A stretch of 64,000 nt of DNA from Metellina segmentata (taxonomy: Eukaryota; Arthropoda; Arachnida; Araneae; Tetragnathidae): assembly GCA_947359465.1 (NCBI GenBank), contig OX375883.1:16184088-16248087 (forward strand). Direction: 5' to 3'. A model generated the notes under the pieces. That model was not told the origin of the DNA. It was given only the letters and a program-made list of their open reading frames with translations, and did no database searches. Made by a program: the position numbers and the translations under genes. Below, piece by piece: positions 696-64,000 of the stretch; positions within the stretch are counted from its first letter, which is position 1, and every line of letters begins with the position of its first letter.

Positions 696-925
696 ATCGT
701 AAACGGGCCAGTAAGCCTAACTAAAGGAGGCGTCAAGACCAACGCGTCGATGAGCGCTTAGCCGCTGGTGAGTATGCTCTTTCTTTTGTGCTTTCGCTCC
801 GCCTTATGTACTCCGTGGCGCTAGCATCGCTACGAGTGTCCCCACTGTACAGGTAGCTCGGTGGATGGGGGGGGGTCGAGTATAGGACATATATTTATAT
901 GGATCGAATTCCCTCCTCGTTGCAG
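696..925. other. Probable intron 5' of the FMO exon
   Basis: No recognisable coding or repeat family, apart from a poly-G run near 868-877. It ends in a pyrimidine-rich stretch and 'cctcgttgcag' directly before the FMO reading frame, as expected for the 3' end of an upstream intron. Earlier FMO exons (FAD- and NADPH-binding motifs) lie outside the window or were not found. Confidence 0.5.
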
Positions 926-1388: not shown

Positions 1389-1430
1389 GTAAGGACTTTC
1401 GGTTTAAATCAGTATTTGAGTGCTGTGACG

Positions 1431-31229: not shown

Positions 31230-31742
31230 GGACGTTAAGAGAGTGGGGTGCCAGCTCGGGTGTTGCCTCGTCATCTGACCGTTGTTCAAAATTATGTAGT
31301 GTCATCCTCAGGTAATGGTAATTTCTAGTTAACGTCGTACTAGAGCAACACAACGGGCTATTGACGACGGTCCGGGAACAGTCCCTCAAGGGAAAGATCC
31401 GAGGACAACATCTCGTAATTTTGAACCACGGTCAGATGACGAAGCAACACCTGAGCTGGCACCCCACTCTCCAAACTTCCACGCCAACCCAACGTGAGGA
31501 CTTTCGGCCACGACATATTGAAGGTGCACCAGCCGCCTCTACACCATACGCTTACAAACATCCATGCCCGGACCCGGATTCGAACCAGGAACCTTCCGAT
31601 CTAGAGGCTAACACCTTAACCACTATACCGGTTGGTCGGCAGTGTCATCCTCAGATCTTTCTCTTAGGGGATTGATACCGGACCGTCGTCAATTGCCCAT
31701 TGTGTTGCTCTAATACAACGTTAATTAAAAATTACCAATTAC
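31230..31742 (+). mobile_element. Old SINE split by a younger full-length SINE
   Basis: 31230-31311 ('gagagtggggtgccagctcg' to 'gtcatcctcag') resumes at 31641 and ends 'caacgttaattaaaaattac'. The younger copy sits between. Confidence 0.9.
31312..31640 (-). mobile_element. Full-length SINE with 14-bp TSD (reference copy)
   Basis: 329 bp. On the minus strand: head 'gccgaccaaccggtatagtg', box A-like 'tggttaaggtg', box B 'ggttcgaatcc', body, and ATTACC-type tail. The TSD 'agtgtcatcctcag' is perfect at 31298-31311 and 31641-31654. Best copy for defining family ends. Confidence 0.95.
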
Positions 31743-36621: not shown

Positions 36622-38123
36622 CAGGGTGGTCCCGAATTCATGGTACAAACTTTAATGGTAGGTACAGGACATTGTAACAATGATTTATTGTATAGGAATG
36701 TATAGTCGCAAGTGACGCGGTGAGGCGTAAACAGGGGAAATAAAAGGAAAGAGAAATGGAGTGATCGGTTGGTATCATTGCCGGTAGAGGGCAGTAGATG
36801 TCTAGCCGCTGTTGAACATGATGCATCGCAGTAGGGAAAAGCGCCATTCACAATTGTGCTGCCGTAGACGATGGGTGACTTTACGTATGCAGAAAAAGCA
36901 GACATGCATTACATGTACGGCCGTGCAAATGGTAACGGCAGAGCTGCGTTACGAATGTATCGCGCGGAGTATCCTGATCGACGAATGCCGGATCATAGAA
37001 TTTTTCAACGGTTACATCGTCAACTTTGTGAAACAGGTGCGTTCGACGTCAACAGACATGGCGCTGGTCGAGTAAGAGCTGTACGCACTCCAAGGCTGGA
37101 AGAAAGCATCTTGAACATTGTGGCTGATAGACCCGAGTCAAGCACAAAAACTGTTGCGCGTGACGTAGTGTGAGTCATCAGACTGTATGCAGAGTGTTAA
37201 ACGAAAATCGCTTACACCCCTTCCATTTTCAGAAAGTACAAGCATTGAATCCGGCAGATTATCCTCGCCGCGTGAACTTCTGCCTGTGGGTGATGCAGCA
37301 ATGTGCGTTGCAGCCGGATTTCGTAGATTATGTGCTATTTACAGATGAAGCGACATTTTCACGCGAGGGTGTCTTTAATGCGCACAATTCCCATGTGTGG
37401 GCAACCGATAATCCACATGCAACGCGTCGACATGCGTTTCAACAACGTTTCAGTATTAATGTGTGGGCTGGTATTGTGAACGACTTTTTGATTGGCCCAT
37501 ACTTACTACCCACGCGGCTCACTGGCGGAAGCTATCTTATTTTTCTGAAAGAAGTGTTACCACAACTGCTGCATGATGTTCCGATCGCCATTCGTAACCG
37601 CATGTGGTTTCAGCACGATGGGGCGCCAGCACACTTCAGCATTGATGTACGGAATTACCTGAATGCCACGTTTGGTACTCGATGGATTGGGCGTGGTGGA
37701 CCAGTCCCTTGGCCACCCCGATCTCCCGATTTATCGAGCCTCGATTACTTTTTATGGGGACATCTAAAGCATCTTGTTTATGAGACTCCAGTTGACTCAG
37801 ATGAGGATCTCGTCGCTCGCTTATCTGTAGCTGCTGCAGGTGTGCGTGAAATACCAGGCATCTTTGAACGTGTACGCCAATCGCTCCACCGACGCTGTCA
37901 AGCATGTATCGATACTGGTGGACGCAATTTTGAACAATTACTGTAAACATGACACTTGTCAACAACGCTTTCAATAAAATCTTTGTTTTTCCTTTCGGCC
38001 GTTATTTCCCCTGTTTTCGCCTCACCGCGTCACTTGCGACTATACATTCCTATACAATAAATCATTGTTACAATGTCCTGTACCTACCATTAAAGTTTGT
38101 ACCATGAATTCGGGACCACCCTG
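36622..38123 (+). mobile_element. Young mariner of the DD41D type
   Basis: Starts 'cagggtggtcccgaattcat' at 36622, with its reverse complement ending 38123; TA duplicated at 36620-36621 and 38124-38125. The TIRs are about 122 bp and I see a single mismatch (taaaca against aaaaca near the inner end). 1502 bp, one nearly intact transposase, so the insertion is recent. Confidence 0.95.
36871..37946 (+). pseudogene. DD41D mariner transposase, one frameshift
   Basis: Cuts and pastes the element at TA. 36871-37173 encodes an N-terminal HTH region starting MGDFTYAEKADMHYMYG, with SSTKTVARDV at its end. A single-base shift at about 37165-37170 moves the frame, which continues SHQTVCRVLNEN to 37946. 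The catalytic region reads YVLFTDEATFSREG (first D), MWFQHDGAPAHFS (second D) and SSLDYFLWGHLK (third D). By my count 41 residues lie between the second and third D, hence DD41D. Total about 358 codons, a full mariner length. Apart from the shift no stop is seen; a sequencing error could not be excluded. Confidence 0.9.
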
Positions 38124-40623: not shown

Positions 40624-42341
40624 TAGGGATGCGACATCGATGTCGATGTTTTCAGAACATCGATGTTTTAAAAAAAAACATCTATGTTTTTAACATAGAT
40701 TATTGGAGTCGATGTTTTTGTAACATCGAGGTTTATTTTTGCCGATGTTTTTACGTTGTCGATGTGTTTTATTTTTAAATAAAAAAAAGTATCGTTATAA
40801 AAATTTTAAATCAGCAAATAAATTAATTTTTATAATCAGCAAATTGAACATACTTATAGACCATTGTGGCCAAGAGTGAAGGGCCTGAAAAGTAGGGATG
40901 CGACATCGATGTCGATGTTTTCCAAACATTGATGTTTTATAAAAACATCGATGTATTGGAGTCGATGTCGCATCACTAGTTAAACTATCTAAACCAGTTT
41001 TAAGAAATGGGGAAAAAAGCTTAAATACACTGAATTTTAAAAACATCGATGGTTTTGGTGCGATGTATGTATTATCAACATCGATGTTTTAATTTTGAAC
41101 ATAGAAGTTTTAATATGGAATATCGAAGTTTCAAAGCATCGTTGTTTTGCTGTCGATGTTGCATGACTCGTTGCTAAACCAGTTTTAAGAAATGGGGGGA
41201 AAGTTTAAATACACTGAATTTTAAAAACATCGATGGTTTTGGTGCGATGTATGTATTATCAACATCGATGTTTTAATTTTGAACATAGAAGTTTTAATAT
41301 GGAATATCGAAGTTTCAAAGCATCGTTGTTTTGCTGTCGATGTTGCATGACTCGTTGCTAAACCAGTTTTAAGAAATGGGGGGAAAGTTTAAATACACTG
41401 AATTTTAAAAACATCGATGGTTTTGGTGCGATGTATGTATTATCAACATCGATGTTTTAATTTTGAACATTGAAGTTTTAATTTTGAATATCGAAATTTC
41501 AAAACATCGTTGTTTTGCTGTCGATGTTGCATGACTCGTTGCTAAACCAGTTTTAAGAAATGGGGGGAAAGTTTAAATACACTGAATTTTAAAAACATCG
41601 ATGGTTTTGGTGCGATGTATGTATTATCAACATCGATGTTTTAATTTTGAACATTGAAGTTTTAATTTTGAATATCGAAGTTTCAAAACATCGTTGTTTT
41701 GCTGTCGATGTTGCATGACTCGTTGCTAAACCAGTTTTAAGAAATGGGGGGAAAGTTTAAATACACTGAATTTTAAAAACATCGATGGTTTTGGTGCGAT
41801 GTATGTATTATCAACATCGATGTTTTAATTTTGAACATAGAAATTTTAATTTTGAATATCGAAGTTTCAAAGCATCGTTGTTTTGCTGTCGATGTTGCAT
41901 GACTCGTTGCTAAACCAGTTTTAAGAAATGGGGGGAAAGTTTAAATACACTGAATTTTAAAAACATCGATGGTTTTGGTGCGATGTATGTATTATCAACA
42001 TCGATGTTTTAATTTTGAACATTGAAGTTTTAATTTTGAATATCGAAGTTTCAAAACATCGTTGTTTTGCTGTCGATGTTGCATGACTCGTTGCTAAACC
42101 AGTTTTAAGAAATGGGGGGAAAGTTTAAATACACTGAATTTTAAAAATAAAGATATTTTGCTGTTGATGTAGCATCACTAGTTGCTAAACCAGTTTTAAG
42201 AAATAGGTGGAAAAAGTTTAAATACACTGAATTTTAAAAACATCGATGTTTTTGGGTCGATGTATTATCAACATCGATGTTTTAATTTTGAACATCGATG
42301 TTTCAAAACATCGATGTTTTGCTGTCGATGTCGCATCCCTA
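40624..42341. mobile_element. ATCGATG hAT-type MITE with internal 184-bp expansion
   Basis: Ends 'tagggatgcgacatcgatg' (40624) and its reverse complement 'catcgatgtcgcatcccta' (ending 42341). Perfect 8-bp TSD 'gttcgaat' (40616-40623 and 42342-42349). The left part resembles the 23604 copy; the right part is a tandem array. No coding sequence; chance open frames are palindromic repeats. Confidence 0.92.
41044..42147. repeat. 184-bp tandem repeat inside the MITE, six copies
   Basis: 'catcgatggttttgg' occurs at 41044, 41228, 41412, 41596, 41780 and 41964, exactly 184 bp apart; a degenerate seventh unit starts about 42148. Units are nearly identical and alternate in small variants ('gaacatagaag' or 'gaacattgaag'). 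Confidence 0.95.
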
Positions 42342-45300
42342 GTTCGAATCCGGGTCCGGACATGGATGTTTGTAAGCGTAGGGTGTAGAGGCGGATGGTG
42401 CACCTTAAATATGTCGTGGCCGAAAGTCCTCACGTTGGGTTGGTGTGGAAGTTTGGAGAGTGGGGTGCCAGCTCAGGTGTTGCTTCGTCATCTGACCGTG
42501 GTTCAAAATGACGAGGTGTTGTCCTCGGATCTTACCCTTAAGGGACTGATCCCGGACCGTCGTCAATAGCCCGTTGTGTTTTTCTAGTACGACGTTAATT
42601 AAAATTACCTAATTACCATTTTCATGGCTTGCCGCGGTTGCTCGGTTGAAAGTGTATTGTATTAGCAACCGGAGGTTTGCGAGTTCGAATTCAACGAAAG
42701 ACCATCATGTAAAAGGGGGGCTGGTACACGTTAAATGTGTTGTGGTCTCAAATGGAGAGTGTGTGCCAAGCTCAGGGGTTGCCTCGTCATCTGAAAGAAT
42801 TTCAATTTACGTGGTGTTGTCCCACGGTAAGGTAAGGTAGAATAATTTTTAATTAATGCCGCACTATACCAACACAACGGGCTATTGACGACGGTCCGGG
42901 ATCAATCTCCTGATGGAAAGATCCGAGGACAATACGTAATTTTGAACACAACGGGCTATTGACGACGGTCCGGGATCAATCTCCTAATGGAAAGATCCGA
43001 GGACAATACGTAATTTTGAACACAACGGGCTATTCACGACGGTCCGGGATCAATCTCCTGATGGAAAGATCCGAGGACAATACGTAATTTTGAACACAAC
43101 GGGCTATTGACGACGGTCCGGGATCAATCTCCTAATGGAAAGATCCGAGGACAATACGTAATTTTGAACACAACGGGCTATTGACGACGGTCCGGGATCA
43201 ATCTCCTGATGGAAAGAACCGAGGACAATACGTAATTTTGAACACAACGGGCTATTGACGACGGTCCTGGATCAATCTCCTGATGGAAAGATCCGAGGAC
43301 AATACGTAATTTTGAACACAACGGGCTATTGACGACGGTCCGGGATCAATCTCCTGATGGAAAGATCCGAGGACAATACGTAATTTTGAACACAACGGGC
43401 TATTGACAACGGTCCGGGATCAATCTCCTGATGGAAAGATCCGAGGACAATACGTAATTTTGAACACAACGGGCTATTGACGACGGTCCGGGATCAATCT
43501 CCTGATGGAAAGATCCGAGGACAATACGTAATTTTGAACACAACGGGCTAGTGACGACGGTCCGGGATCAATATCCTGATGGAAAGATCCGAGGACAATA
43601 CGTAATTTTGAACACAACGGGCTATTGACGACGGTCCGGGATCAATATCCTGATGGAAAGATCCGAGGACAATACGTAATTTTGAACACAACGGGCTATT
43701 GACGACGGTCCGGGATCAATCTCCTGATGGAAAGATCCGAGGACAATACGTAATTTTGAACACAACGGGCTATTGACGACGGTCCGGGATCAATCTCCTG
43801 ATGGAAAGATCCGAGGACAATACGTAATTTTGAACACAACGGGCTATTGACGACGGTCCGGGATCAATCTCCTGATGGAAAGATCCGAGGACAATACGTA
43901 ATTTTGAACACAACGGGCTATTGACGACGGTCCGGGATCAATCTCCTGATGGAAAGATCCGAGGACAGTACGTAATTTTGAACACAACGGGCTATTGACG
44001 ACGGTCCGGGATCAATCTCCTGATGGAAAGATTCGAGGACAATACGTAATTTTGAACACAACGGGCTATTGACGACGGTCCGGGATCAATCTCCTGATGG
44101 AAAGATCCGAGGACAATACGTAATTTTGAACACAACGGGCTATTGCCGACGGTCCGGGATCAATCTCCTAATGGAAAGATCCGAGGACAATACGTAATTT
44201 TGAACACAACGGGCTATTGACGACGGTCCGGGATCAATCTCCTGATGGAAAGATCCGAGGACAATACGTAATTTTGAACACAACGGGCTATTGACGACGG
44301 TCCGGGATCAGTCTCCTAATGGAAAGATCCGAGGACAATACTTAATTTTGAACACAACGGGCTATTGACGACAGTCCGGGATCAATCTCCTCATGGAAAG
44401 ATCCGAGGACAATACGTAATTTTGAACACAACGGGCTATTGACGACGGTCCGGGATCAATCTCCTGATGGAAAGATCCGAGGACAATACGTAATTTTGAA
44501 CACAACGGGCTATTGACGACGGTCCGGGATCAATCTCCTGATGGAAAGATCCGAGGACAATACGTAATTTTGAACACAACGGGCTATTGACGACGGTCCG
44601 GGATCAATCTCCTGATGGAAAGATCCGAGGACAATACGTAATTTTGAACACAACGGGCTATTGACGACGGACCGGGATCAATCTCCTGATGGAAAGATCC
44701 GAGGACAATACGTAATTTTGAACACAACGGGCTATTGACGACGGTCCGGGATCAATATCCTGATGGAAAGATCCGAGGACAATACGTAATTTTGAACACA
44801 ACGGGCTATTGACGACGGTCCGGGATCAATCTCCTGATGGAAAGATCCGAGGACAATACGTAATTTTGAACACAACGGGCTATTGACGACGGTCCGGGAT
44901 CAATCTCCTGATGGAAAGATCCGAGGACAATACGTAATTTTGAACACAACGGGCTATTGACGACGGTCCGGGATCAATCTCCTGATGGAAAGATCCGAGG
45001 ACAATACGTAATTTTGAACACAACGGGCTATTGACGACGGTCCGGGATCAATCTCCTGATGGAAAGATCCGAGGACAATACGTAATTTTGAACACAACGG
45101 GCTATTGACGACGGTCCGGGATCAATCTCCTGATGGAAAGATCCGAGGACAATACGTAATTTTGAACACAACGGGCTAGTGACGACGGTCCGGGATCAAT
45201 CTCCTGATGGAAAGATCCGAGGACAATACGTAATTTTGAACACAACGGGCTATTGACGACGGTCCGGGATCAATATCCTGATGGAAAGATCCGAGGACAA

Positions 45301-45770
45301 TACGTAATTTTGAACACAACGGGCTATTGACGACGGTCCGGGATCAATCTCCTGATGGAAAGATCCGAGGACAATACGTAATTTTGAACACAACGGGCTA
45401 TTGACGACGGTCCGGGATCAATCTCCTGATGGAAAGATCCGAGGACAATACTTAATTTTGAACACAACGGGCTTATGACGACGGTCCGGGATCAATCTCC
45501 TGATGGAAAGATCCGAGGACAATACGTAATTTTGAACACAACGGGCTATTGACGACGGTCCGGGATCAATCTCCTGATGGAAAGATCCGAGGACAGTACG
45601 TAATTTTGAACACAACGGGCTATTGACGACGGTCCGGGATCAATCTCCTGATGGAAAGATCCGAGGACAATACGTAATTTTGAACACAACGGGCTATTGA
45701 CGACGGTCCGGGATCAATCTCCTGATGGAAAGATCCGAGGACAATACGTAATTTTGAACACAACGGGCTA

Positions 45771-47100
45771 TTGCCGACGGTCCGGGATCAATCTCCTAAT
45801 GGAAAGATCCGAGGCCAATACGTAATTTTGAACACAGCGGGCTATTGACGACGGTCCGGGATCAATCTCCTGATGGAAAGATCCGAGGACTATACGTAAT
45901 TTTAAACACAACGGGCTATTGACGACGGTCCGGGATCAATCTCCTAATGGAAAGATCCGAGGACAATACGTAATTTTGAACACAACGGGCTATTGACGAC
46001 GGTCCGGGATCAATCTCCTGATGGAAAGATCCGAGGACAATACGTAATTTTGAACACAGCGGGCTATTGACGACGGTCCGGGATCAATCTCCTAATGGAA
46101 AGATCCGAGACAATACGTAATTTTGAACACAACGGGCTATTGACGACGGTCCGGGATCAATCTCCTAATGGAAAGATCCGAGACAATACGTAATTTTGAA
46201 CACAACGGGCTAGTGACGACGGTCCGGGATCAATCTCCTGATGGAAAGATCCGAGGACAATACGTAATTTTGAACACAACGGGCTATTGACGACGGTCCG
46301 GGATCAATCTCCTGATGGAAAGATCCGAGGACAATACGTAATTTTGAACACAACGGGCTATTGACGACGGTCCGGGATCAATCTCCTGATGGAAAGATCC
46401 GAGGACAATACGTAATTTTGAACACAACGGGCTATTGCCGACGGTCCGGGATCAATCTCCTAATGGAAAGATCCGAGGCCAATACGTAATTTTGAACACA
46501 GCGGGCTATTGACGACGGTCCGGGATCAATCTCCTGATGGAAAGATCCGAGGACTATACGTAATTTTAAACACAACGGGCTATTGACGACGGTCCGGGAT
46601 CAATCTCCTAATGGAAAGATCCGAGGACAATACGTAATTTTGAACACAACGGGCTATTGACGACGGTCCGGGATCAATCTCCTGATGGAAAGATCCGAGG
46701 ACAATACGTAATTTTGAACACAGCGGGCTATTGACGACGGTCCGGGATCAATCTCCTAATGGAAAGATCCGAGACAATACGTAATTTTGAACACAACGGG
46801 CTATTGACGACGGTCCGGGATCAATCTCCTAATGGAAAGATCCGAGACAATACGTAATTTTGAACACAACGGGCTAGTGACGACGGTCCGGGATCAATCT
46901 CCTGATGGAAAGATCCGAGGACAATACGTAATTTTGAACACAACGGGCTATTGACGACGGTCCGGGATCAATCTCCTGATGGAAAGATCCGAGGACTATA
47001 CGTAATTTTGAACACAACGGGCTATTGACGACGGTCCGGGATCAATCTCCTAATGGAAAGATCCGAGGACAATACGTAATTTTGAACACAACGGGCTATT
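45771..47100. repeat. 664-bp higher-order repeat within array 1
   Basis: The block 'ttgccgacgg', then 'gaggccaata', 'cacagcggg', 'gactatacg' and 'aattttaaac' occurs at 45771 and again at 46435, 664 bp later (about nine units including 73-bp variants), followed by the same order of downstream variants. Confidence 0.8.
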
Positions 47101-50100
47101 GACGACGGTCCGGGATCAATATCCTAATGGAAAGATCCGAGACAATACGTAATTTTGAACACAACGGGCTAGTGACGACGGTCCGGGATCAATCTCCTAA
47201 TGGAAAGATCCGAGGACAATACGTAATTTTGAACACAACGGGCTATTGACGACGGTCCGGGATCAATCTCCTAATGGAAAGATCCGAGGACAATACGTAA
47301 TTTTGAACACAACGGGATATTGACGACGGTCCGGGATCAATCTCCTAATGGAAAGATCCGAGGACAATACGTAATTTTGAACACAACGGGCTATTGACGA
47401 CGGTCCGGGATCAATCTCCTAATGGAAAGATCCGAGGACAATACGTAATTTTGAACACAACGGGCTATTGACGACGGTCCGGGATCAATCTCCTAATGGA
47501 AAGATCCGAGACAATACGTAATTTTGAACACAACGGGCTAGTGACGACGGTCCGGGATCAATCTCCTGATGGAAAGATCCGAGGACAATACGTAATTTTG
47601 AACACAGCGGGCTATTGACGACGGTCCGGGATCAATCTCCTAATGGAAAGATCCGAGACAATACGTAATTTTGAACACAACGGGCTATTGACGACGGTCC
47701 GGGATCAATCTCCTAATGGAAAGATCCGAGGACAATACGTAATTTTGAACACAACGGGCTATTGACGACGGTCCGGGATCAATCTCCTGATGGAAAGATC
47801 CGAGGACAATACGTAATTTTGAACACAGCGGGCTATTGACGACGGTCCGGGATCAATCTCCTAATGGAAAGATCCGAGACAATACGTAATTTTGAACACA
47901 ACGGGCTATTGACGACGGTCCGGGATCAATCTCCTAATGGAAAGATCCGAGACAATACGTAATTTTGAACACAACGGGCTAGTGACGACGGTCCGGGATC
48001 AATCTCCTGACGGAAAGATCCGAGGACAATACGTAATTTTGAACACAACGGGCTATTGACGACGGTCCGGGATCAATCTCCTGATGGAAAGATTCGAGGA
48101 CAATACGTAATTTTGAACACAACGGGCTATTGACGACGGTCCGGGATCAATCTCCTAATGGAAAGATCCGAGGACAATACGTAATTTTGAACACAACGGG
48201 CTATTGACGACGGTCCGGGATCAATATCCTAATGGAAAGATCCGAGACAATACGTAATTTTGAACACAACGGGCTAGTGACGACGGTCCGGGATCAATCT
48301 CCTAATGGAAAGATCCGAGGACAATACGTAATTTTGAACACAACGGGATATTGACGACGGTCCGGGATCAATCTCCTAATAGAAAGATCCGAGGACAATA
48401 CGTAATTTTGAACACAACGGGCTATTGACGACGGTCCGGGATCAATCTCCTAATGGAAAGATCCGAGGACAATACGTAATTTTGAACACAACGGGCTATT
48501 GACGACGGTCCGGGATCAATCTCCTAATGGAAAGATCCGAGACAATACGTAATTTTGAACACAACGGGCTAGTGACGACGGTCCGGGATCAATCTCCTGA
48601 TGGAAAGATCCGAGGACAATACGTAATTTTGAACACAACGGGCTATTGACGACGGTCCGGGATCAATCTCCTGATGGAAAGATCCGAGGACAATACGTAA
48701 TTTTGAACACAACGGGCTATTGACGACGGTCCGGGATCAATCTCCTGATGGAAAGATCCGAGGACAATACGTAATTTTGAACACAACGGGCTATTGACGA
48801 CGGTCCGGGATCAATCTCCTAATGGAAAGATCCGAGACAATACGTAATTTTGAACACAACGGGCTAGTGACGACGGTCCGGGATCAATCTCCTAATGGAA
48901 AGATCCGAGGACAATACGTAATTTTGAACACAACGGGCTATTAACGACGGTCCGGGATCAGTCTCCTAATGGAAAGATCCGAGACAATACGTAATTTTGA
49001 ACACAACGGGCTATTGACGACGGTCCGGGATCAATCTCCTAATGGAAAGATCCGAGACAATACGTAATTTTGAACACAACGGGCTAGTGACGACTGTCCG
49101 GGATCAATCTCCTGATGGAAAGATCCGAGGACAATACGTAATTTTGAACACAACGGGCTATTGACGACGGTCCGGGATCAATCTCCTGATGGAAAGATCC
49201 GAGGACAATACGTAATTTTGAACACAACGGGCTATTGACGACGGTCCGGGATCAATCTCCTGATGGAAAGATCCGAGGACAATACGTAATTTTGAACACA
49301 ACGGGCTAGTGACGACGGTCCGGGATCAATCTCCTGATGGAAAGATCCGAGGACAATACGTAATTTTGAACACATCGGGCTATTGACGACGGTCCGGGAT
49401 CAATCTCCGAATGGAAAGATCCGAGGACAATACGTAATTTTGAACACAACGGGCTATTGACGACGGTCCGGGATCAATCTCCTAATGGAAAGATCCGAGG
49501 ACAATACGTAATTTTGAACACAGCGGGCTATTGACGACGGTCCGGGATCAATCTCCTGATGGAAAGATCCGAGGACTATACGTAATTTTAAACACAACGG
49601 GCTATTGACGACGGTCCGGGATCAATCTCCTAATGGAAAGATCCGAGGACAATACGTAATTTTGAACACAACGGGCTATTGACGACGGTCCGGGATCAAT
49701 CTCCTAATGGAAAGATCCGAGGACAATACGTAATTTTGAACACAACGGGCTATTGACGACGGTCCGGGATCAATCTCCTGATGGAAAGATCCGAGGACAA
49801 TACGTAATTTTGAACACAACGGGCTATTGACGACGGTCCGGGATCAATCTCCTGATGGAAAGATCCGAGGACAATACGTAATTTTGAACACAACGGGCTA
49901 GAGACGAAGGTCCGGGATCAATCTCCTAATGGAAAGATCCGAGGACAATACGTAATTTTGAACACAACGGGCTAGTGACGACGGTCCGGGATCAATCTCC
50001 TAATAGAAAGATCCGAGACAATACGTAATTTTGAACACAACGGGCTATTGTAGACGGTCCGGGATCAATCTCCTAATGGAATGATCCGAGGACAATACGT

Positions 50101-53100
50101 AATTTTGAACACAACGGGCTATTGACGACGGTCCGGGATCAATCTCCTAATGGAAAGATCCGAGGACAATACGTAATTTTGAACACATCGGGCTATTGAC
50201 GACGGTCCGGGATCAATCTCCTAATGGAAAGATCCGAGGACAATACGTAATTTTGAACACAGCGGGCTATTGACGACGGTCCGGGATCAATCTCCTGATG
50301 GAAAGATCCGAGGACTATACGTAATTTTAAACACAACGGGCTATTGACGACGGTCCGGGATCAATCTCCTAATGGAATGATCCGAGGACAATACGTAATT
50401 TTGAACACAACGGGCTATTGACGACGGTCCGGGATCAATCTCCTGATGGAAAGATCCGAGGACAATACGTAATTTTGAACACAACGGGCTATTGTGGACG
50501 GTCCGGGATCAATCTCCTGATGGAAAGATCCGAGGACAATACGTAATTTTGAACACAACGGGCTATTGACGACGGTCCGGGATCAATCTCCTGATGGAAA
50601 GATCCGAGGACAATACGTAATTTTGAACACAACGGGCTAGTGACGACGGTCCGGGATCAATATCCTGATGGAAAGATCCGAGGACAATACGTAATTTTGA
50701 ACACAACGGGCTATTGACGACGGTCCGGGATCAATATCCTGATGGAAAGATCCGAGGACAATACGTAATTTTGAACACAACGGGCTATTGACGACGGTCC
50801 GGGATCAATCTCCTGATGGAAAGATCCGAGGACAATATGTAATTTTGAACACAACGGGCTATTGACGACGGTCCGGGATCAATCTCCTGATGGAAAGATC
50901 CGAGGACAATACGTAATTTTGAACACAACGGGCTATTGACGACGGTCCGGGATCAATCTCCTGATGGAAAGATCCGAGGACAATACGTAATTTTGAACAC
51001 AACGGGCTAGAGACGAAGGTCCGGGATCAATCTCCTAATAGAAAGATCCGAGGACAATACGTAATTTTGAACACAACGGGCTAGTGACGACGGTCCGGGA
51101 TCAATCTCCTAATAGAAAGATCCGAGACAATACGTAATTTTGAACACAACGGGTTATTGTAGACGGTCCGGGATCAATCTCCTAATGGAATGATCCGAGG
51201 ACAATACGTAATTTTGAACACAACGGGCTATTGACGACGGTCCGGGATCAATCTCCTAATGGAAAGATCCGAGGACAATACGTAATTTTGAACACATCGG
51301 GCTATTGACGACGGTCCGGGATCAATCTCCTAATGGAAAGATCCGAGGACAATACGTAATTTTGAACACAACGGGCTATTGACGACGGTCCGGGATCAAT
51401 CTCCTAATGGAAAGATCCGAGGACAATACGTAATTTTGAACACAGCGGGCTATTGACGACGGTCCGGGATCAATCTCCTGATGGAAAGATCCGAGGACTA
51501 TACGTAATTTTAAACACAACGGGCTATTGACAACGGTCCGGGATCAATCTCCTAATGGAATGATCCGAGGACAATACGTAATTTTGAACACAACGGGCTA
51601 TTGACGACGGTCCGGGATCAATCTCCTAATGGAAAGATCCGAGGACAATACGTAATTTTTAACACATCGGGCTATTGACGACGGTCCGGGATCAATCTCC
51701 TAATGGAAAGATCCGAGGACAATACGTAATTTTGAACACAACGGGCTATTGACGACTGTCCGGGATCAATCTCCTGATGGAAAGATCCGAGGACAATACG
51801 TAATTTTGAACACAACGGGCTATTGACGACGGTCCGGGATCAATCTCCTAATGGAAAGATTCGAGGACAATACGTAATTTTGAAAACAACGGGCTATTGA
51901 CGACGGTCCGGGATCAATCTCCTGATGGAAAGATCCGAGGACAATACGTAATTTTGAACACAACGGGCTATTGACGACGGTCCGGGATCAATCTCCTGAT
52001 GGAAAGATCCGAGGACAATACGTAATTTTGAACACAACGGGCTATTGACCGCGGTCCGGGATCAATCTCCTGATGGAAAGATCCGAGGACAATACGTAAT
52101 TTTGAACACAACGGGCTATTGACGACGGTCCGGGATCAATCTCCTGATGGAAAGATCCGAGGACAATACGTAATTTTGAACACAACGGGCTATTGACGAC
52201 GGTCCGGGATCAATCTCCTGATGGAAAGATCCGAGGACAATACGTAATTTTGAACACAACGGGCTAGTGACGACGGTCCGGGATCAATATCCTGATGGAA
52301 AGATCCGAGGACAATACGTAATTTTGAACACAACGGGCTATTGACGACGGTCCGGGATCAATATCCTGATGGAAAGATCCGAGGACAATACGTAATTTTG
52401 AACACAACGGGCTATTGACGACGGTCCGGGATCAATCTCCTGATGGAAAGATCCGAGGACAATACGTAATTTTGAACACAACGGGCTATTGACGACGGTC
52501 CGGGATCAATCTCCTGATGGAAAGATCCGAGGACAATACGTAATTTTGAACACAACGGGCTATTGACGACGGTCCGGGATCAATCTCCTGATGGAAAGAT
52601 CCGAGGACAATACGTAATTTTGAACACAACGGGCTAGAGACGAAGGTCCGGGATCAATCTCCTAATGGAAAGATCCGAGGACAATACGTAATTTTGAACA
52701 CAACGGGCTAGTGACGACGGTCCGGGATCAATCTCCTAATAGAAAGATCCGAGACAATACGTAATTTTGAACACAACGGGCTATTGCGACGGTCCGGGAT
52801 CAATCTCCTAATGGAATGATCCGAGGACAATACGTAATTTTGAACACAACGGGCTATTGACGACGGTCCGGGATCAATCTCCTAATGGAAAGATCCGAGG
52901 ACAATACGTAATTTTGAACACATCGGGCTATTGACGACGGTCCGGGATCAATCTAATAATGGAAAGATCCGAGGACAATACGTAATTTTGAACACAGCGG
53001 GCTATTGACGACGGTCCGGGATCAATCTCCTAATGGAAAGATCCGAGGACAATACGTAATTTTGAACACAGCGGGCTATTGACGACGGTCCGGGATCAAT

Positions 53101-54239
53101 CTCCTGATGGAAAGATCCGAGGACTATACGTAATTTTAAACACAACGGGCTATTGACGACGGTCCGGGATCAATCTCCTAATGGAAAGATCCGAGGACAA
53201 TACGTAATTTTGAACACAACGGGCTATTGACGACGGTCCGGGATCAATCTCCTGATGGAAAGATCCGAGGACAATACGTAATTTTGAACACAACGGGCTA
53301 TTGACGACGGTCCGGGATCAATCTCTAATGGAAAGATCCGAGACAATACGTAATTTTGAACACAACGGGCTAGTGACGACGGTCCGGGATCAATCTCCTA
53401 ATGGAAAGATCCGAGGACAATACGTAATTTTGAACACAACGGGCTATTGACGACGGTCCGGGATCAATCTCCTAATGGAAAGATCCCAGGACAATACGTA
53501 ATTTTGAACACAACGGGATATTGACGACGGTCCGGGATCAATCTCCTAATGGAAAGATCCGAGGACAATACGTAATTTTGAACACAACGGGCTATTGACG
53601 ACGGTCCGGGATCAATCTCCTAATGGAAAGATCCGAGGACAATACGTAATTTTGAACACAACGGGCTAATGACGACGGTCCGGGATCAATCTCCTAATGG
53701 AAAGATCCGAGACAATACGTAATTTTGAACACAACGGGCTAGTGACGACGGTCCGGGATCAATCTCCTGATGGAAAGATCCGAGGACAATACGTAATTTT
53801 GAACACAACGGGCTATTGACGACGGTCCGGGATCAATCTCCTGATGGAAAGATCCGAGGACAATACGTAATTTTGAACACAACGGGCTATTGACGACGGT
53901 CCGGGATCAATCTCCTGATGGAAAGATCCGAGGACAATACGTAATTTTGAACACAGCGGGCTATTGACGACGGTCCGGGATCAATCTCCTAATGGAAAGA
54001 TCCGAGACAATACGTAATTTTGAACACAACGGGCTATTGACGACGGTCCGGGATCAGTCTCCTAATGGAAAGATCCGAGACAATACGTAATTTTGAACAC
54101 AACGGGCTAGTGACGACGGTCCGGGATCAGTCTCCTAATGGAAAGATCCGAGACAATACGTAATTTTGAACACAACGGGCTATTGACGACGGTCCGGGAT
54201 CAATCTCCTAATGGAAAGATCCGAGACAATACGTAATTT

Positions 54240-57200
54240 TGAACACAACGGGCTAGTGACGACGGTCCGGGATCAATCTCCTGATGGAAAGATCCGAGGA
54301 CAATACGTAATTTTGTACACAACGGGCTATTGACGACGGTCCGGGATCAATCTCCTAATGGAAAGATCCGAGGACAATACGTAATTTTGAACACAACGGG
54401 CTATTGACGACGGTCCGGGATCAGTCTCCTAATGGAAAGATCCGAGACAATACGTAATTTTGAACACAACGGGCTATTGACGACGGTCCGGGATCAATCT
54501 CCTGATGGAAAGATCCGAGGACAATACGTAATTTTGAACACAACGGGCTAGTGACGACGGTCCGGGATCAATCTCCTGATGGAAAGATCCGAGGACAATA
54601 CGTAATTTTGAACACAACGGGCTATTGACGACGGTCCGGGATCAATCTCCTGATGGAAAGATCCGAGGACAATACGTAATTTTGAACACAACGGGCTTAT
54701 TGACGACGGTCCGGGATCAATCTCCTGATGGAAAGATCCGAGGACAATACGTAATTTTGAACACAGCGGGCTATTGACGACGGTCCGGGATCAATCTCCT
54801 GATGGAAAGATCCGAGGACAATACGTAATTTTGAACACAACGGGCTATTGACGACGGTCCGGGATCAATCTCCTAATGGAAAGATCCGAGACAATACGTA
54901 ATTTTGAACACAACGGGCTATTGACGACGGTCCGGGATCAATCTCCTAATGGAAAGATCCGAGGACAATACGTAATTTTGAACACAACGGGATATTGACG
55001 ACGGTCCGGGATCAATCTCCTAATGGAAAGATCCGAGGACAATACGTAATTTTGAACACAACGGGCTATTGACGACGGTCCGGGATCAGTCTCCTAATGG
55101 AAAGATCCGAGGACAATACGTAATTTTGAACACAACGGGCTATTGACGACGGTCCGGGATCAATCTCCTGATGGAAAGATCCGAGGACAATACGTAATTT
55201 TGAACACAACGGGCTATTGACGACGGTCCGGGATCAATCTCCTAATGGAAAGATCCGAGACAATACGTAATTTTGAACACAACGGGCTAGGGACGACGGT
55301 CCGGGATAAATCTCCTAATGGAAAGATCCGAGGACAATACGTAATTTTGAACACAACGGGCTATTGACGACGGTCCGGGATCAATCTCCTAATGGAAAGA
55401 TCCGAGGACAATACGTAATTTTGAACACAACGGGCTATTGACGACGGTCCGGGATCAATCTCCTAATGGAAAGATCCGAGGACAATACGTAATTTTGAAC
55501 ACAACGGGCTATTGACGACGGTCCGGGATCAGTCTCCTAATGGAAAGATCCGAGGACAGTACGTAATTTTGAACACAACGGGATATTGACGACGGTCCGG
55601 GATCAATCTCCTAATGGAAAGATCCGAGGACAATACGTAATTTTGAACACAACGGGCTATTGACGACGGTCCAGGATTAATCTCCTAATGGAAAGATCCG
55701 AGGACAATACGTAATTTTGAACACAACGGGCTATTGACGACGGTCCGGGATCAATCTCCTAATGGAATGATCCGAGACAATACGTAATTTTGAACACAAC
55801 GGGCTAGTGACGACGGTCCGGGATCAATCTCCTGATGGAAAGATCCGAGGACAATACGTAATTTTGTACACAACGGGCTATTGACGACGGTCCGGGATCA
55901 ATCTCCTAATGGAAAGATCCGAGGACAATACGTAATTTTGAACACAACGGGCTATTGACGACGGTCCGGGATCAGTCTCCTAATGGAAAGATCCGAGACA
56001 ATACGTAATTTTGAACACAACGGGCTATTGACGACGGTCCGGGATCAATCTCCTGATGGAAAGATCCGAGGACAATACGTAATTTTGAACACAACGGGCT
56101 AGTGACGACGGTCCGGGATCAATCTCCTGATGGAAAGATCCGAGGACAATACGTAATTTTGAACACAACGGGCTATTGACGACGGTCCGGGATCAATCTC
56201 CTGATGGAAAGATCCGAGGACAATACGTAATTTTGAACACAACGGGCTTATTGACGACGGTCCGGGATCAATCTCCTGATGGAAAGATCCGAGGACAATA
56301 CGTAATTTTGAACACAGCGGGCTATTGACGACGGTCCGGGATCAATCTCCTGATGGAAAGATCCGAGGACAATACGTAATTTTGAACACAACGGGCTATT
56401 GACGACGGTCCGGGATCAATCTCCTAATGGAAAGATCCGAGACAATACGTAATTTTGAACACAACGGGCTATTGACGACGGTCCGGGATCAATCTCCTAA
56501 TGGAAAGATCCGAGGACAATACGTAATTTTGAACACAACGGGATATTGACGACGGTCCGGGATCAATCTCCTAATGGAAAGATCCGAGGACAATACGTAA
56601 TTTTGAACACAACGGGCTATTGACGACGGTCCGGGATCAGTCTCCTAATGGAAAGATCCGAGGACAATACGTAATTTTGAACACAACGGGCTATTGACGA
56701 CGGTCCGGGATCAATCTCCTGATGGAAAGATCCGAGGACAATACGTAATTTTGAACACAACGGGCTATTGACGACGGTCCGGGATCAATCTCCTAATGGA
56801 AAGATCCGAGACAATACGTAATTTTGAACACAACGGGCTAGTGACGACGGTCCGGGATAAATCTCCTAATGGAAAGATCCGAGGACAATACGTAATTTTG
56901 AACACAACGGGCTATTGACGACGGTCCGGGATCAATCTCCTAATGGAAAGATCCGAGGACAATACGTAATTTTGAACACAACGGGCTATTGACGACGGTC
57001 CGGGATCAATCTCCTAATGGAAAGATCCGAGGACAATACGTAATTTTGAACACAACGGGCTATTGACGACGGTCCGGGATCAGTCTCCTAATGGAAAGAT
57101 CCGAGGACAGTACGTAATTTTGAACACAACGGGATATTGACGACGGTCCGGGATCAATCTCCTAATGGAAAGATCCGAGGACAATACGTAATTTTGAACA

Positions 57201-57340
57201 CAACGGGCTATTGACGACGGTCCAGGATTAATCTCCTAATGGAAAGATCCGAGGACAATACGTAATTTTGAACACAACGGGATATTGACGACGGTCCGGG
57301 ATCAATCTCCTAATGGAAAGATCCGAGGACAATACGTAAT
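54240..57340. repeat. 1551-bp higher-order repeat, two tandem copies
   Basis: Private variants recur at a constant 1551-bp distance: 'ttttgtacac' 54311/55862, 'acgggcttat' 54691/56242, 'ccgggataaa' 55301/56852, 'ccaggattaa' 55671/57222. That is about 21 units. Copy borders are approximate (about 54240-55790 and 55791-57340). Confidence 0.9.
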
Positions 57341-57790
57341 TTTGAACACAACGGGGTATTGACGACGGTCCGGGATCAGTCTCCTAATGGAAAGATCCGA
57401 GGACAATACGTAATTTTGAACACAACGGGCTATTGACGACGGTCCGGGATCAATCTCCTAATGGAAAGATCCGAGGATAACTACATGTAATTTTGAACCA
57501 CGGTCAGATGACGTGGCAACACCTGAGCTGGCACCCCACTCTCCAAGCTTGAGCACCAACCCAACGTGAGGACTCTCGGCCACAACAGATTTAAGCTGCA
57601 CCAGCCGCCTTTATACCTTATGCTTACAAACATCCATGCCTTGACGCTTTATCGAAACAGGCACCTTCCGATCTAAAGGCTAACACCATAACGTTTAGAC
57701 AGGTTGGTAGGCGGTGTTGTCCACGGCTCCTTTTGGACTGATTTGGGCCTTCTTCAATAGACTGTTGTGTTGCTCCAGTAAGACGTTAAT

Positions 57791-58018
57791 TAAAATATAT
57801 ACATACCACCTTTTATCAAAGTTAGAAGGTTTGGTTGATTTTCATGAAGCAATGTCCTCAACGGGACCTTGTGCAAGATATATAGCTATAAAGGATGCGA
57901 CATCGACAGCAAAACATCTTTTTTTTTAAACATCAATTTTCAAAATTAAACCATCGATGTTTTTATAACAATAATTATTGTTAGTTATTATTAATTATTT
58001 ATCAATATATTATGGGGA
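57791..58018. other. Spacer between arrays, with an ATCGATG-MITE fragment
   Basis: 57892-57962 carries 'ggatgcgacatcgacagcaa' and 'ccatcgatgtttt', a truncated copy of the hAT-type MITE. The remainder is AT-rich (ATT/TTA repeats) and looks unique. Confidence 0.6.
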
Positions 58019-61000
58019 GGTAATGGTAATGGTAATTGTAGTTAACGTCGTACTAGAGCAACACAACGGGCTATTGACGACGGTCCGGGATCAATATCCT
58101 AATGGAAAGATCCGAGACAATACGTAATTTTGAACACAACGGGCTATTGACGACGGTCCGGGATCAATCTCCTAATGGAAAGATCCGAGGACAATACGTA
58201 ATTTTGAACACAACGGGATATTGACGACGGTCCGGGATCAATCTCCTAATGGAAAGATCCGAGGACAATACGTAATTTTGAACACAACGGGCTATTGACG
58301 ACGGTCCGGGATCAGTCTCCTAATGGAAAGATCCGAGGACAATACGTAATTTTGAACACAACGGGCTATTGACGACGGTCCGGGATCAATCTCCTGATGG
58401 AAAGATCCGAGGACAATACGTAATTTTGAACACAACGGGCTATTGACGACGGTCCGGGATCAATCTCCTGATGGAAAGATCCGAGGACAATACGTAATTT
58501 TGAACACAACGGGCTATTGACCGCGGTCCGGGATCAATCTCCTGATGGAAAGATCCGAGGACAATACGTAATTTTGAACACAACGGGCTATTGACGACGG
58601 TCCGGGATCAATCTCCTGATGGAAAGATCCGAGGACAATACGTAATTTTGAACACAACGGGCTATTGACGACGGTCCGGGATCAATCTCCTGATGGAAAG
58701 ATCCGAGGACAATACGTAATTTTGAACACAACGGGCTAGTGACGACGGTCCGGGATCAATATCCTGATGGAAAGATCCGAGGACAATACGTAATTTTGAA
58801 CACAACGGGCTATTGACGACGGTCCGGGATCAATATCCTGATGGAAAGATCCGAGGACAATACGTAATTTTGAACACAACGGGCTATTGACGACGGTCCG
58901 GGATCAATCTCCTGATGGAAAGATCCGAGGACAATACGTAATTTTGAACACAACGGGCTATTGACGACGGTCCGGGATCAATCTCCTGATGGAAAGATCC
59001 GAGGACAATACGTAATTTTGAACACAACGGGCTATTGACGACGGTCCGGGATCAATCTCCTGATGGAAAGATCCGAGGACAATACGTAATTTTGAACACA
59101 ACGGGCTAGAGACGAAGGTCCGGGATCAATCTCCTAATGGAAAGATCCGAGGACAATACGTAATTTTGAACACAACGGGCTAGTGACGACGGTCCGGGAT
59201 CAATCTCCTAATAGAAAGATCCGAGACAATACGTAATTTTGAACACAACGGGCTATTGCGACGGTCCGGGATCAATCTCCTAATGGAATGATCCGAGGAC
59301 AATACGTAATTTTGAACACAACGGGCTATTGACGACGGTCCGGGATCAATCTCCTAATGGAAAGATCCGAGGACAATACGTAATTTTGAACACATCGGGC
59401 TATTGACGACGGTCCGGGATCAATCTAATAATGGAAAGATCCGAGGACAATACGTAATTTTGAACACAGCGGGCTATTGACGACGGTCCGGGATCAATCT
59501 CCTAATGGAAAGATCCGAGGACAATACGTAATTTTGAACACAGCGGGCTATTGACGACGGTCCGGGATCAATCTCCTGATGGAAAGATCCGAGGACTATA
59601 CGTAATTTTAAACACAACGGGCTATTGACGACGGTCCGGGATCAATCTCCTAATGGAAAGATCCGAGGACAATACGTAATTTTGAACACAACGGGCTATT
59701 GACGACGGTCCGGGATCAATCTCCTGATGGAAAGATCCGAGGACAATACGTAATTTTGAACACAACGGGCTATTGACGACGGTCCGGGATCAATCTCTAA
59801 TGGAAAGATCCGAGACAATACGTAATTTTGAACACAACGGGCTAGTGACGACGGTCCGGGATCAATCTCCTAATGGAAAGATCCGAGGACAATACGTAAT
59901 TTTGAACACAACGGGCTATTGACGACGGTCCGGGATCAATCTCCTAATGGAAAGATCCCAGGACAATACGTAATTTTGAACACAACGGGATATTGACGAC
60001 GGTCCGGGATCAATCTCCTAATGGAAAGATCCGAGGACAATACGTAATTTTGAACACAACGGGCTATTGACGACGGTCCGGGATCAATCTCCTAATGGAA
60101 AGATCCGAGGACAATACGTAATTTTGAACACAACGGGCTAATGACGACGGTCCGGGATCAATCTCCTAATGGAAAGATCCGAGACAATACGTAATTTTGA
60201 ACACAACGGGCTAGTGACGACGGTCCGGGATCAATCTCCTGATGGAAAGATCCGAGGACAATACGTAATTTTGAACACAACGGGCTATTGACGACGGTCC
60301 GGGATCAATCTCCTGATGGAAAGATCCGAGGACAATACGTAATTTTGAACACAACGGGCTATTGACGACGGTCCGGGATCAATCTCCTGATGGAAAGATC
60401 CGAGGACAATACGTAATTTTGAACACAGCGGGCTATTGACGACGGTCCGGGATCAATCTCCTAATGGAAAGATCCGAGACAATACGTAATTTTGAACACA
60501 ACGGGCTATTGACGACGGTCCGGGATCAGTCTCCTAATGGAAAGATCCGAGACAATACGTAATTTTGAACACAACGGGCTAGTGACGACGGTCCGGGATC
60601 AGTCTCCTAATGGAAAGATCCGAGACAATACGTAATTTTGAACACAACGGGCTATTGACGACGGTCCGGGATCAATCTCCTAATGGAATGATCCGAGACA
60701 ATACGTAATTTTGAACACAACGGGCTAGTGACGACGGTCCGGGATCAATCTCCTGATGGAAAGATCCGAGGACAATACGTAATTTTGTACACAACGGGCT
60801 ATTGACGACGGTCCGGGATCAATCTCCTAATGGAAAGATCCGAGGACAATACGTAATTTTGAACACAACGGGCTATTGACGACGGTCCGGGATCAGTCTC
60901 CTAATGGAAAGATCCGAGACAATACGTAATTTTGAACACAACGGGCTATTGACGACGGTCCGGGATCAATCTCCTAATGGAAAGATCCGAGACAATACGT

Positions 61001-64000
61001 AATTTTGAACACAACGGGCTAGTGACGACGGTCCGGGATCAATCTCCTGATGGAAAGATCCGAGGACAATACGTAATTTTGAACACAACGGGCTATTGAC
61101 GACGGTCCGGGATCAATCTCCTGATGGAAAGATCCGAGGACAATACGTAATTTTGAACACAACGGGCTATTGACGACGGTCCGGGATCAATCTCCTGATG
61201 GAAAGATCCGAGGACAATACGTAATTTTGAACACAACGGGCTAGTGACGACGGTCCGGGATCAATCTCCTGATGGAAAGATCCGAGGACAATACGTAATT
61301 TTGAACACAACGGGCTAGTGACGACGGTCCGGGATCAATCTCCTGATGGAAAGATCCGAGGACAATACGTAATTTTGAACACAACGGGCTATTGACGACG
61401 GTCCGGGATCAATCTCCTGATGGAAAGATCCGAGGACAATACGTAATTTTGAACACAACGGGCTAGTGACGACGGTCCGGGATCAATCTCCTGATGGAAA
61501 GATCCGAGGACAATACGTAATTTTGAACACAACGGGCTATTGACGACGGTCCGGGATCAATCTCCTGATGGAAAGATCCGAGGACAATACGTAATTTTGA
61601 ACACAACGGGCTTATTGACGACGGTCCGGGATCAATCTCCTGATGGAAAGATCCGAGGACAATACGTAATTTTGAACACAGCGGGCTATTGACGACGGTC
61701 CGGGATCAATCTCCTGATGGAAAGATCCGAGGACAATACGTAATTTTGAACACAACGGGCTATTGACGACGGTCCGGGATCAATCTCCTAATGGAAAGAT
61801 CCGAGACAATACGTAATTTTGAACACAACGGGCTATTGACGACGGTCCGGGATCAATCTCCTAATGGAAAGATCCGAGGACAATACGTAATTTTGAACAC
61901 AACGGGATATTGACGACGGTCCGGGATCAATCTCCTAATGGAAAGATCCGAGGACAATACGTAATTTTGAACACAACGGGCTATTGACGACGGTCCGGGA
62001 TCAGTCTCCTAATGGAAAGATCCGAGGACAATACGTAATTTTGAACACAACGGGCTATTGACGACGGTCCGGGATCAATCTCCTGATGGAAAGATCCGAG
62101 GACAATACGTAATTTTGAACACAACGGGCTATTGACGACGGTCCGGGATCAATCTCCTAATGGAAAGATCCGAGACAATACGTAATTTTGAACACAACGG
62201 GCTAGTGACGACGGTCCGGGATAAATCTCCTAATGGAAAGATCCGAGGACAATACGTAATTTTGAACACAACGGGCTATTGACGACGGTCCGGGATCAAT
62301 CTCCTAATGGAAAGATCCGAGGACAATACGTAATTTTGAACACAACGGGATATTGACGACGGTCCGGGATCAATCTCCTAATGGAAAGATCCGAGGACAA
62401 TACGTAATTTTGAACACAACGGGCTATTGACGACGGTCCGGGATCAATCTCCTAATGGAAAGATCCGAGGACAATACGTAATTTTGAACACAACGGGCTA
62501 TTGACGACGGTCCGGGATCAGTCTCCTAATGGAAAGATCCGAGGACAGTACGTAATTTTGAACACAACGGGATATTGACGACGGTCCGGGATCAATCTCC
62601 TAATGGAAAGATCCGAGGACAATACGTAATTTTGAACACAACGGGCTATTGACGACGGTCCAGGATTAATCTCCTAATGGAAAGATCCGAGGACAATACG
62701 TAATTTTGAACACAACGGGATATTGACGACGGTCCGGGATCAATCTCCTAATGGAAAGATCCGAGGACAATACGTAATTTTGAACACAACGGGCTATTGA
62801 CGACGGTCCGGGATCAATCTCCTGATGGAAAGATCCGAGGACAATACGTAATTTTGAACACAACGGGCTATTGACGACGGTCCGGGATCAATCTCCTGAT
62901 GGAAAGATCCGAGGACAATACGTAATTTTGAACACAACGGGCTAGAGACGAAGGTCCGGGATCAATCTCCTAATGGAAAGATCCGAGGACAATACGTAAT
63001 TTTGAACACAACGGGCTAGTGACGACGGTCCGGGATCAATCTCCTAATAGAAAGATCCGAGACAATACGTAATTTTGAACACAACGGGCTATTGCGACGG
63101 TCCGGGATCAATCTCCTAATGGAATGATCCGAGGACAATACGTAATTTTGAACACAACGGGCTATTGACGACGGTCCGGGATCAATCTCCTAATGGAAAG
63201 ATCCGAGGACAATACGTAATTTTGAACACATCGGGCTATTGACGACGGTCCGGGATCAATCTAATAATGGAAAGATCCGAGGACAATACGTAATTTTGAA
63301 CACAGCGGGCTATTGACGACGGTCCGGGATCAATCTCCTAATGGAAAGATCCGAGGACAATACGTAATTTTGAACACAGCGGGCTATTGACGACGGTCCG
63401 GGATCAATCTCCTGATGGAAAGATCCGAGGACTATACGTAATTTTAAACACAACGGGCTATTGACGACGGTCCGGGATCAATCTCCTAATGGAAAGATCC
63501 GAGGACAATACGTAATTTTGAACACAACGGGCTATTGACGACGGTCCGGGATCAATCTCCTGATGGAAAGATCCGAGGACAATACGTAATTTTGAACACA
63601 ACGGGCTATTGACGACGGTCCGGGATCAATCTCTAATGGAAAGATCCGAGACAATACGTAATTTTGAACACAACGGGCTAGTGACGACGGTCCGGGATCA
63701 ATCTCCTAATGGAAAGATCCGAGGACAATACGTAATTTTGAACACAACGGGCTATTGACGACGGTCCGGGATCAATCTCCTAATGGAAAGATCCCAGGAC
63801 AATACGTAATTTTGAACACAACGGGATATTGACGACGGTCCGGGATCAATCTCCTAATGGAAAGATCCGAGGACAATACGTAATTTTGAACACAACGGGC
63901 TATTGACGACGGTCCGGGATCAATCTCCTAATGGAAAGATCCGAGGACAATACGTAATTTTGAACACAACGGGCTAATGACGACGGTCCGGGATCAATCT
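58019..64000 (-). mobile_element. Second array-bearing SINE, runs off the window
   Basis: Opens with a textbook SINE 3' end on the minus strand: (taatgg) tail, 'gttaacgtcgtactagagca', then 'acacaacggg'. The 74-bp array starts at 58062 and fills the rest. Its head and outer TSD are beyond 64000. The tail sequence differs from that of array 1, so this is a separate insertion site. Confidence 0.88.
58062..64000 (-). repeat. 74-bp satellite array 2 (>=80 units)
   Basis: Same unit and variants as array 1. Markers align with array 1 at +6472 bp ('gaccgcgg' 52047/58519, 'ctagagacgaagg' 52634/59106, 'ctaatgacg' 53666/60138). They repeat inside array 2 at +3836 bp ('ctagagacgaagg' 59106/62942, 'attgcgacgg' 59255/63091, 'ctaatgacg' 60138/63974). 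Near 61.6-62.7 kb it instead follows the 55.7-57.3 kb block of array 1, with one extra 74-bp unit ('acgggcttat' 61606, 'ccaggattaa' 62660). Confidence 0.95.

What the first reader, a model, noticed from the sequence alone, without database searches (positions are those of the whole stretch)
42813..57726. A 14.6-kb satellite born inside one SINE copy, still inside its own target-site duplication
The 74-bp satellite is an internal segment of the resident SINE. On the minus strand the order is SINE head (57712-57498), about 198 tandem copies of one segment, SINE 3' end and tail (42872-42828). Outside this lie matching 14-15-bp direct repeats in an older SINE (42813-42827 and 57713-57726). The simplest history is: a normal ~330-bp SINE inserted, a 74-bp segment was duplicated, and the array grew in place to 45 times the element's length. 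Satellites derived from transposons are known, but a mature array with both parental element ends and the original TSD intact is a clear view of the birth event.
Basis: partly seen in the sequence, partly recalled or inferred. Interest (0 to 1): 0.9.

Follow-up and report, generated by a model that had tools for sequence, protein, structure and literature searches.

The report
Newborn satellite inside one SINE
A 74-base piece of one short transposable element appears to have multiplied in place into hundreds of tandem copies at a single spot in the genome and then recombined with a neighbouring element, so the early life of a satellite DNA can be read from its scars.

Summary
On the minus strand a SINE (SINE1) is split by 198 copies of a 74-bp piece of its own body (42871-57495); both SINE ends and a 15/14-bp target-site duplication inside an older SINE are present. 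But the window cuts the locus. An array of the same unit starts at 58060, behind the 3' end of a second SINE. In the held genome five arrays follow one another (198, 170, 16, 33, 37 units = 454). A 564-bp spacer (SINE1 head, right TSD, old-SINE 3' part, SINE2 tail) follows each; the last and most diverged copy leads into SINE2 itself, which has one unexpanded 77-bp unit and its own TSD. The four later arrays open with one identical unit; all five close with one identical SINE1 edge unit. This is the expected product of an unequal crossover between the SINE1 array and SINE2, probably at array unit 58. The unit-unit junction is almost confined to this locus: 442 of 455 genome-wide pattern matches. 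Birth in SINE1 is favoured, not proven. SINE-derived satellites are known; this is an unusually complete member.

The parts
42630..42827 (+). left part of the older SINE (start approximate) that SINE1 entered; ends with the left TSD copy
   Evidence: alignment of joined flanks to the SINE family
42813..42827 (+). left TSD copy GGTGTTGTCCCACGG, the only copy of this exact form in the 94 kb
42828..42870 (-). SINE1 3' end and tail; occurs once in the 94 kb (no other place within 8 of 43 mismatches)
42871..57495 (-). array A1, 198 units of the 74-bp SINE-derived repeat
47085..47157 (-). A1 unit 58 (type N), the likely array partner in the founding crossover with SINE2
   Evidence: matches the start of A5 for 387 bp exactly; the other type-N unit (48190) matches for 158 bp
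57419..57495 (-). SINE1 edge unit (77 bp, four private differences at its head-side end); identical copy closes all five arrays
57496..57712 (-). SINE1 head and body, first of five copies
57713..57726 (+). right TSD copy GGTGTTGTCCACGG, first of five identical copies (others at continued coordinates 70823, 72572, 75575, 78874)
57713..57795 (+). right part of the older SINE
57496..58059 (.). spacer sp1 (SINE1 head, right TSD, old-SINE 3' part, about 220 bp, SINE2 tail), first of five copies
58020..58059 (-). copy of the SINE2 3' end and tail joined to satellite by recombination
   Evidence: five copies, the last in front of SINE2's own unit at 79220
58060..64000 (-). array A2, in-window part; continues to 70605 (170 units in all)

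Best explanation
One tRNA-type SINE (SINE1) inserted on the minus strand into an older SINE and made a TSD. A segment of about 77 bp in its body was duplicated, a 3-bp-deleted 74-bp form took over, and the array grew in place by unequal exchange. A second, 5'-truncated SINE (SINE2) sits in the same orientation beyond the old-SINE remnant. Its single unit paired with a unit of the array (probably A1 unit 58) on a sister or homologous chromatid, and a crossover within 19 identical bases (AACACAACGGGCTATTGAC) duplicated everything from that unit through the SINE1 head, right TSD and spacer to the SINE2 tail. Further unequal exchanges made five arrays with five spacers, and inside A2 a 52-unit block (3,836 bp) in tandem. 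SHOWN by sequence: element ends, TSDs, five arrays, spacer copies, uniform junctions, unexpanded SINE2. INFERRED: that the exchange was a crossover, the order of events, and that the first duplication happened in SINE1.
For: Both SINE1 ends and TSD. Spacer copies 99.5-100% alike after each array, SINE1 tail only at the far left, SINE2 with one ordinary unit and its own TSD ATATTATGGGGAGG only at the far right. First units of A2-A5 identical, last units of A1-A5 identical. SINE2 unit and first array unit share exactly 19 bases before the first difference. Start of A5 matches A1 from unit 58 for 387 bp. Spacers sp4 and sp5 carry the family base at column 151, sp1-sp3 a derived one; sp5 differs further, so the copies next to SINE2 are the older ones. 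Having only the window, I had expected SINE1 head and spacer copies farther right as the product of such a crossover; the sequence fetched later shows them. The junction pattern is almost confined to the locus: 442 of 455 matches.
Against: The unit is nearer to the family consensus (3 of 74 substitutions plus a 3-bp deletion) than SINE1's flanks (41 of 267, summed by hand; Fisher p 0.0098, binomial p 0.0022); neighbouring changes are counted as independent there. Two of the unit's three differences occur in other window copies, which softens this. The edge unit's four private changes occur in no other unit type. Exact repeats of up to 7,715 bp are also what an assembly error would give. By run length alone the A1-A5 match (5 units) is reached by shuffles (maximum 5 of 200). 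No dimer or oligomer SINE was found as an intermediate.
Confidence: 0.78

Rival explanations
1. The satellite arose in another, less decayed SINE copy and was copied into SINE1 by homologous replacement (gene conversion, or integration of a circle carrying the array). SINE1's ends and TSD then mark only the host, and the crossover with SINE2 came later.
For: Unit 3 of 74 versus SINE1 flanks 41 of 267 from consensus; private changes of SINE1 begin right at both array borders.
Against: No donor array: 442 of 455 junction matches lie here; of the 13 others 2 were inspected and are not tandem junctions, 11 were not seen. A majority consensus of many copies stays near the ancestor, so part of the difference is expected in place too.
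Confidence: 0.12
2. Assembly artefact: the number of arrays, spacers or units is wrong, for instance one array and one spacer unrolled several times.
For: 7,715 bp exact at offset 3,836; spacers sp1 and sp2 identical over 564 bp. No reads were available.
Against: Spacers carry consistent differences (columns 22, 151, 232, 433), the arrays between them differ in length and unit order, and the SINE2 tail-satellite junction is a new sequence, not a repeat of an existing one. No N in the 94 kb.
Confidence: 0.07
3. A SINE that carries the tandem array transposes as such (like the VNTR-bearing SVA elements), and SINE1 is one such copy.
For: Array inside one TSD.
Against: The junction pattern is almost absent elsewhere; 0 of 35 fetched genome copies have the exact 14-base junction core.
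Confidence: 0.02
4. The array was born in SINE2 and spread to SINE1.
For: Four arrays start behind a SINE2 tail.
Against: SINE2 itself has one ordinary 77-bp unit, 12 positions off the satellite unit, and all arrays end in the SINE1 edge unit.
Confidence: 0.01

Closest known systems
SINE-derived satellites (sSat1-3) of squamate reptiles, Vassetzky et al. 2023, PMC10702118 (text parts 1-3 of 5 and the Discussion read)
   Same: Repeat unit of about 70-290 nt cut from a tRNA-type SINE, always shorter than it; few to more than 1,000 units; terminal units that run on into the SINE terminus.
   Different: There usually one SINE end, both ends being a minor variant, up to thousands of loci, and a subtelomeric tendency. 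Here both ends and a TSD, apparently one locus, about 14% along a 114-Mb contig, and a spacer captured by recombination with a neighbouring SINE.
[quoted passage not shown] seen only as table rows and references in PMC9659126
   Same: A tandem repeat grown inside a single retroelement copy.
   Different: By the table row the B1 case has a hexanucleotide unit; the papers themselves were not seen.
Satellites from tandem repeats inside LTR retrotransposons of Lathyrus, PMC7004042 (passages)
   Same: Arrays inside retroelements that occasionally expand to satellites.
   Different: There the elements carry short arrays in many dispersed copies; here no other tandem copy was confirmed.

Membership tests
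SINE-derived satellite (sSat type) | repeat unit is an internal part of a SINE family of the same genome | tested here: met
   alignment with 18 window copies and 35 genome copies
SINE-derived satellite (sSat type) | at least four tandem units | tested here: met
   454 units in five arrays
SINE-derived satellite (sSat type) | terminal units extend to a SINE terminus | tested here: met
   both SINE1 termini, with TSD
SINE-derived satellite (sSat type) | several loci, subtelomeric tendency (reported tendency, not a strict criterion) | tested here: not met
   442 of 455 junction matches at this locus, 11 of 13 others unseen; position 16.2 of 114.2 Mb
tRNA-derived SINE (host family) | TSD and short-repeat tail | tested here: met
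   TSDs of SINE1, SINE2 and the copy at 31 kb (14 bp); TTACC-type tails
tRNA-derived SINE (host family) | tRNA-like head with Pol III boxes | tested here: inconclusive
   B-box-like GGTTCGAATCC in the family alignment by eye; ARAGORN and Rfam found nothing in the window
SVA-like composite SINE carrying a VNTR | array present in many transposed copies | tested here: not met

The most novel reading that the evidence does not exclude
The locus records the first steps of a satellite in one place: duplication inside a single SINE, growth, then capture of flanking DNA by crossover with a neighbouring SINE. The founding recombination is mapped to one array unit and 19 bases, and the spacer copies act as an internal clock. 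Neighbouring SINE copies would be the handles by which a newborn array turns into a compound macrosatellite.
Probability: 0.6. Interest if true: 0.68.

Novelty: new member of a known kind. Interest (0 to 1): 0.55.

Why it matters
How a satellite begins is usually inferred from mature families with many loci. Here the parental element ends, the insertion scar, the unexpanded neighbour and the recombination junctions survive at what looks like the only locus. Steps that models propose (first duplication, unequal exchange, capture of a spacer, higher-order repeats) can be ordered from one sequence and tested with a few long reads or haplotypes.

Tried and rejected
Array born in SINE2: rejected, SINE2 has one ordinary unit. 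An interim idea, held while only the window could be read, that the array had invaded both SINEs from outside: weakened once SINE2 proved unexpanded and the junction pattern nearly confined to the locus; kept as a rival. Hairpin-driven amplification: the unit folds no better than shuffles as DNA (z -0.50 and -0.71). Edge decay of A1: none (differences per unit: first ten 1.4, last ten without the edge unit 1.2, middle 1.5). Organism: not determined. Among the 120 listed relatives of the mariner-like ORF, 7 carry a species name, 6 Trichonephila clavipes (spider) and 1 Acanthoscelides obtectus (beetle). The Argiope bruennichi assembly of PMC7788392 (passages) differs in length and scaffold number, so no species is named. 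A protein search with the BRD4-like ORF gave nothing. Sixteen exact 18-mer matches in prokaryote genomes are taken as chance and were not followed; a 24-mer had none in viral contigs. Not answered despite retries: relatives of the SINE1 head and a count of ordinary SINE copies in the genome.

Full report
WHAT IS THERE. A 74-bp tandem array of 198 units fills 42871-57495. Read on the minus strand it is bordered by the 3' end and tail of a SINE (42828-42870) and by the head and body of a SINE (57496-57712). An alignment with eighteen other SINE copies of the window, some of them partial, shows that the unit is an internal stretch of this family, 77 bp long in ordinary copies. The ends of SINE1 are abutted by a 15/14-bp direct repeat with one base of difference. 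An older plus-strand SINE becomes continuous if the insert and one repeat copy are skipped, and other members show the uninterrupted site. So SINE1 is a real nested insertion with its TSD.

WHAT WAS MISSED. TRF reports a second array of the same unit from 58060 to the window end, behind the 3' end of a different SINE. The two arrays share a run of 30 identical units in the same order (maximum 6 in 1000 shuffles of the 80 complete A2 units in the window) and 2,331 bp letter for letter.

THE WHOLE LOCUS. The window is C11:16184088-16248087 of a 1.665-Gb assembly in 173 contigs. I fetched 30 kb to the right and continue the window coordinates. Five arrays stand at 42871-57495 (198 units), 58060-70605 (170), 71170-72354 (16), 72919-75357 (33) and 75922-78656 (37), 454 units or 33.5 kb, over a span of 35.8 kb. 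After each stands a 564-bp spacer (563 in the last): SINE1 head and body, right TSD, 3' part of the older SINE, about 220 bp of other sequence, and the SINE2 tail. sp1 and sp2 are identical; sp3 and sp4 differ from sp1 at one site each, sp5 at two sites and one indel. After sp5 comes SINE2's own unit at 79220-79296, 77 bp, ordinary form, then its truncated 5' end. SINE2 spans about 79180-79313 and has the TSD ATATTATGGGGAGG on both sides (79167 and 79314). The SINE1 tail occurs once in the 94 kb, at the far left.

MECHANISM. The first units of A2-A5 are identical to each other, and so are the last units of A1-A5. One unequal crossover between an array unit and the single unit of SINE2, followed by duplication of the product, gives just this. 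SINE2's unit and the first unit of A2 agree for 19 bases before they part. A5, which adjoins the oldest spacer, matches A1 from unit 58 for 387 bp exactly, A4 for 232, A2 and A3 for 87; the only other type-N unit in A1 (unit 73, 48190) matches A4 and A5 for 158. So the array partner was probably unit 58. Given a type-N unit, the chance that the next four agree is about 2.4e-5 for each of the two. By run length alone the match is not outstanding: shuffles of A5 also reach 5 units. At spacer column 151, sp4 and sp5 carry the base of the SINE family (27 of the 32 copies that have a base there), sp1-sp3 another. The spacers next to SINE2 are therefore the older ones. Later growth came in blocks: A2 holds 3,836-bp (52-unit) repeats with 7,715 bp exact, and A1 a 1,073-bp exact duplication at an offset of 1,551. 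The unit ends lie in short imperfect repeats of the SINE (CCGTGGTT and CCGTTGTGTT, by eye), which could have seeded the first duplication; this is inference.

WAS IT BORN IN SINE1? For: both SINE1 ends; unexpanded SINE2; the unit-unit junction pattern, with up to 2 mismatches, has 455 matches in the genome (449 forward, 6 reverse, 0 for the reversed control), of which 442 lie in this 94 kb. Of the 13 others, 2 were inspected and neither is a tandem junction; 11 were not seen because the list is cut. A second pattern, for a junction in SINEs without the 3-bp deletion, has 4 matches with up to 1 mismatch: 2 were inspected and are nested SINEs, 2 were not fetched but have the same letters as one inspected. 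None of 35 genome copies chosen for likeness to the unit has the exact 14-base junction core, and no head-to-tail unit pair was seen among 31 unit-like matches in the window outside the arrays. Against: the unit is nearer to the family consensus (3 of 74 plus the deletion) than SINE1's flanks (41 of 267, summed by hand; p 0.002-0.01). Two of the unit's three differences occur in other window copies, and the third resembles L059 and L060 by eye, which points to a subfamily and softens this. I keep transfer from a donor as a rival (0.12).

WHAT IS KNOWN. Satellites made from parts of SINEs were described in squamate reptiles, usually with one SINE end and as a minor variant with both (PMC10702118; parts 1-3 of 5 and the Discussion read). 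Mouse VNTRs from SINE B1 and minisatellites from LTRs appear as table rows in PMC9659126 (passages). Expansion of tandem repeats inside LTR elements is the subject of PMC7004042 (passages). Passages of PMC12628747 and PMC12692304 were also seen. In what I read I did not meet a case with both ends, the TSD and capture of a spacer by crossover with a neighbouring SINE. The searches were made, of an open-access library only, so this is no claim that none is in print.

LIMITS. 

Noticed in passing
8233-8364, 31227-31742, 42813-42827; SINE consensus about 222-245: SINEs seem to insert into other SINEs in opposite orientation at one place: 5 of 7 opposite-orientation breaks scored lie there, but these 5 rows are only 3 independent insertions. 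The satellite's 3-bp deletion lies in the same stretch, and no SINE was seen inside the arrays. Small sample.
   Followed up: partly
58915-70465 (continued coordinates; window part 58915-64000): A 3,836-bp (52-unit) higher-order repeat in tandem in A2, exact over 7,715 bp: very recent growth, or an assembly loop.
   Followed up: partly
40989-42147: A separate 184-bp tandem repeat, 6.3 copies, 98% matches, just left of the locus.
   Followed up: no
1537-3301: A 114-bp tandem repeat, 15.4 copies, that stays open in several frames and gives long spurious-looking ORFs.
   Followed up: no
37170-37946 (+): A mariner-like transposase ORF of 258 aa; its best listed relative is 93% identical and 358 aa long.
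   Followed up: partly
27739-28413 (+) and 899-1501 (+): Frames with Pfam matches to the BRD4 C-terminal domain (just above its cut-off) and to flavin monooxygenases, possibly exons of host genes.
   Followed up: no
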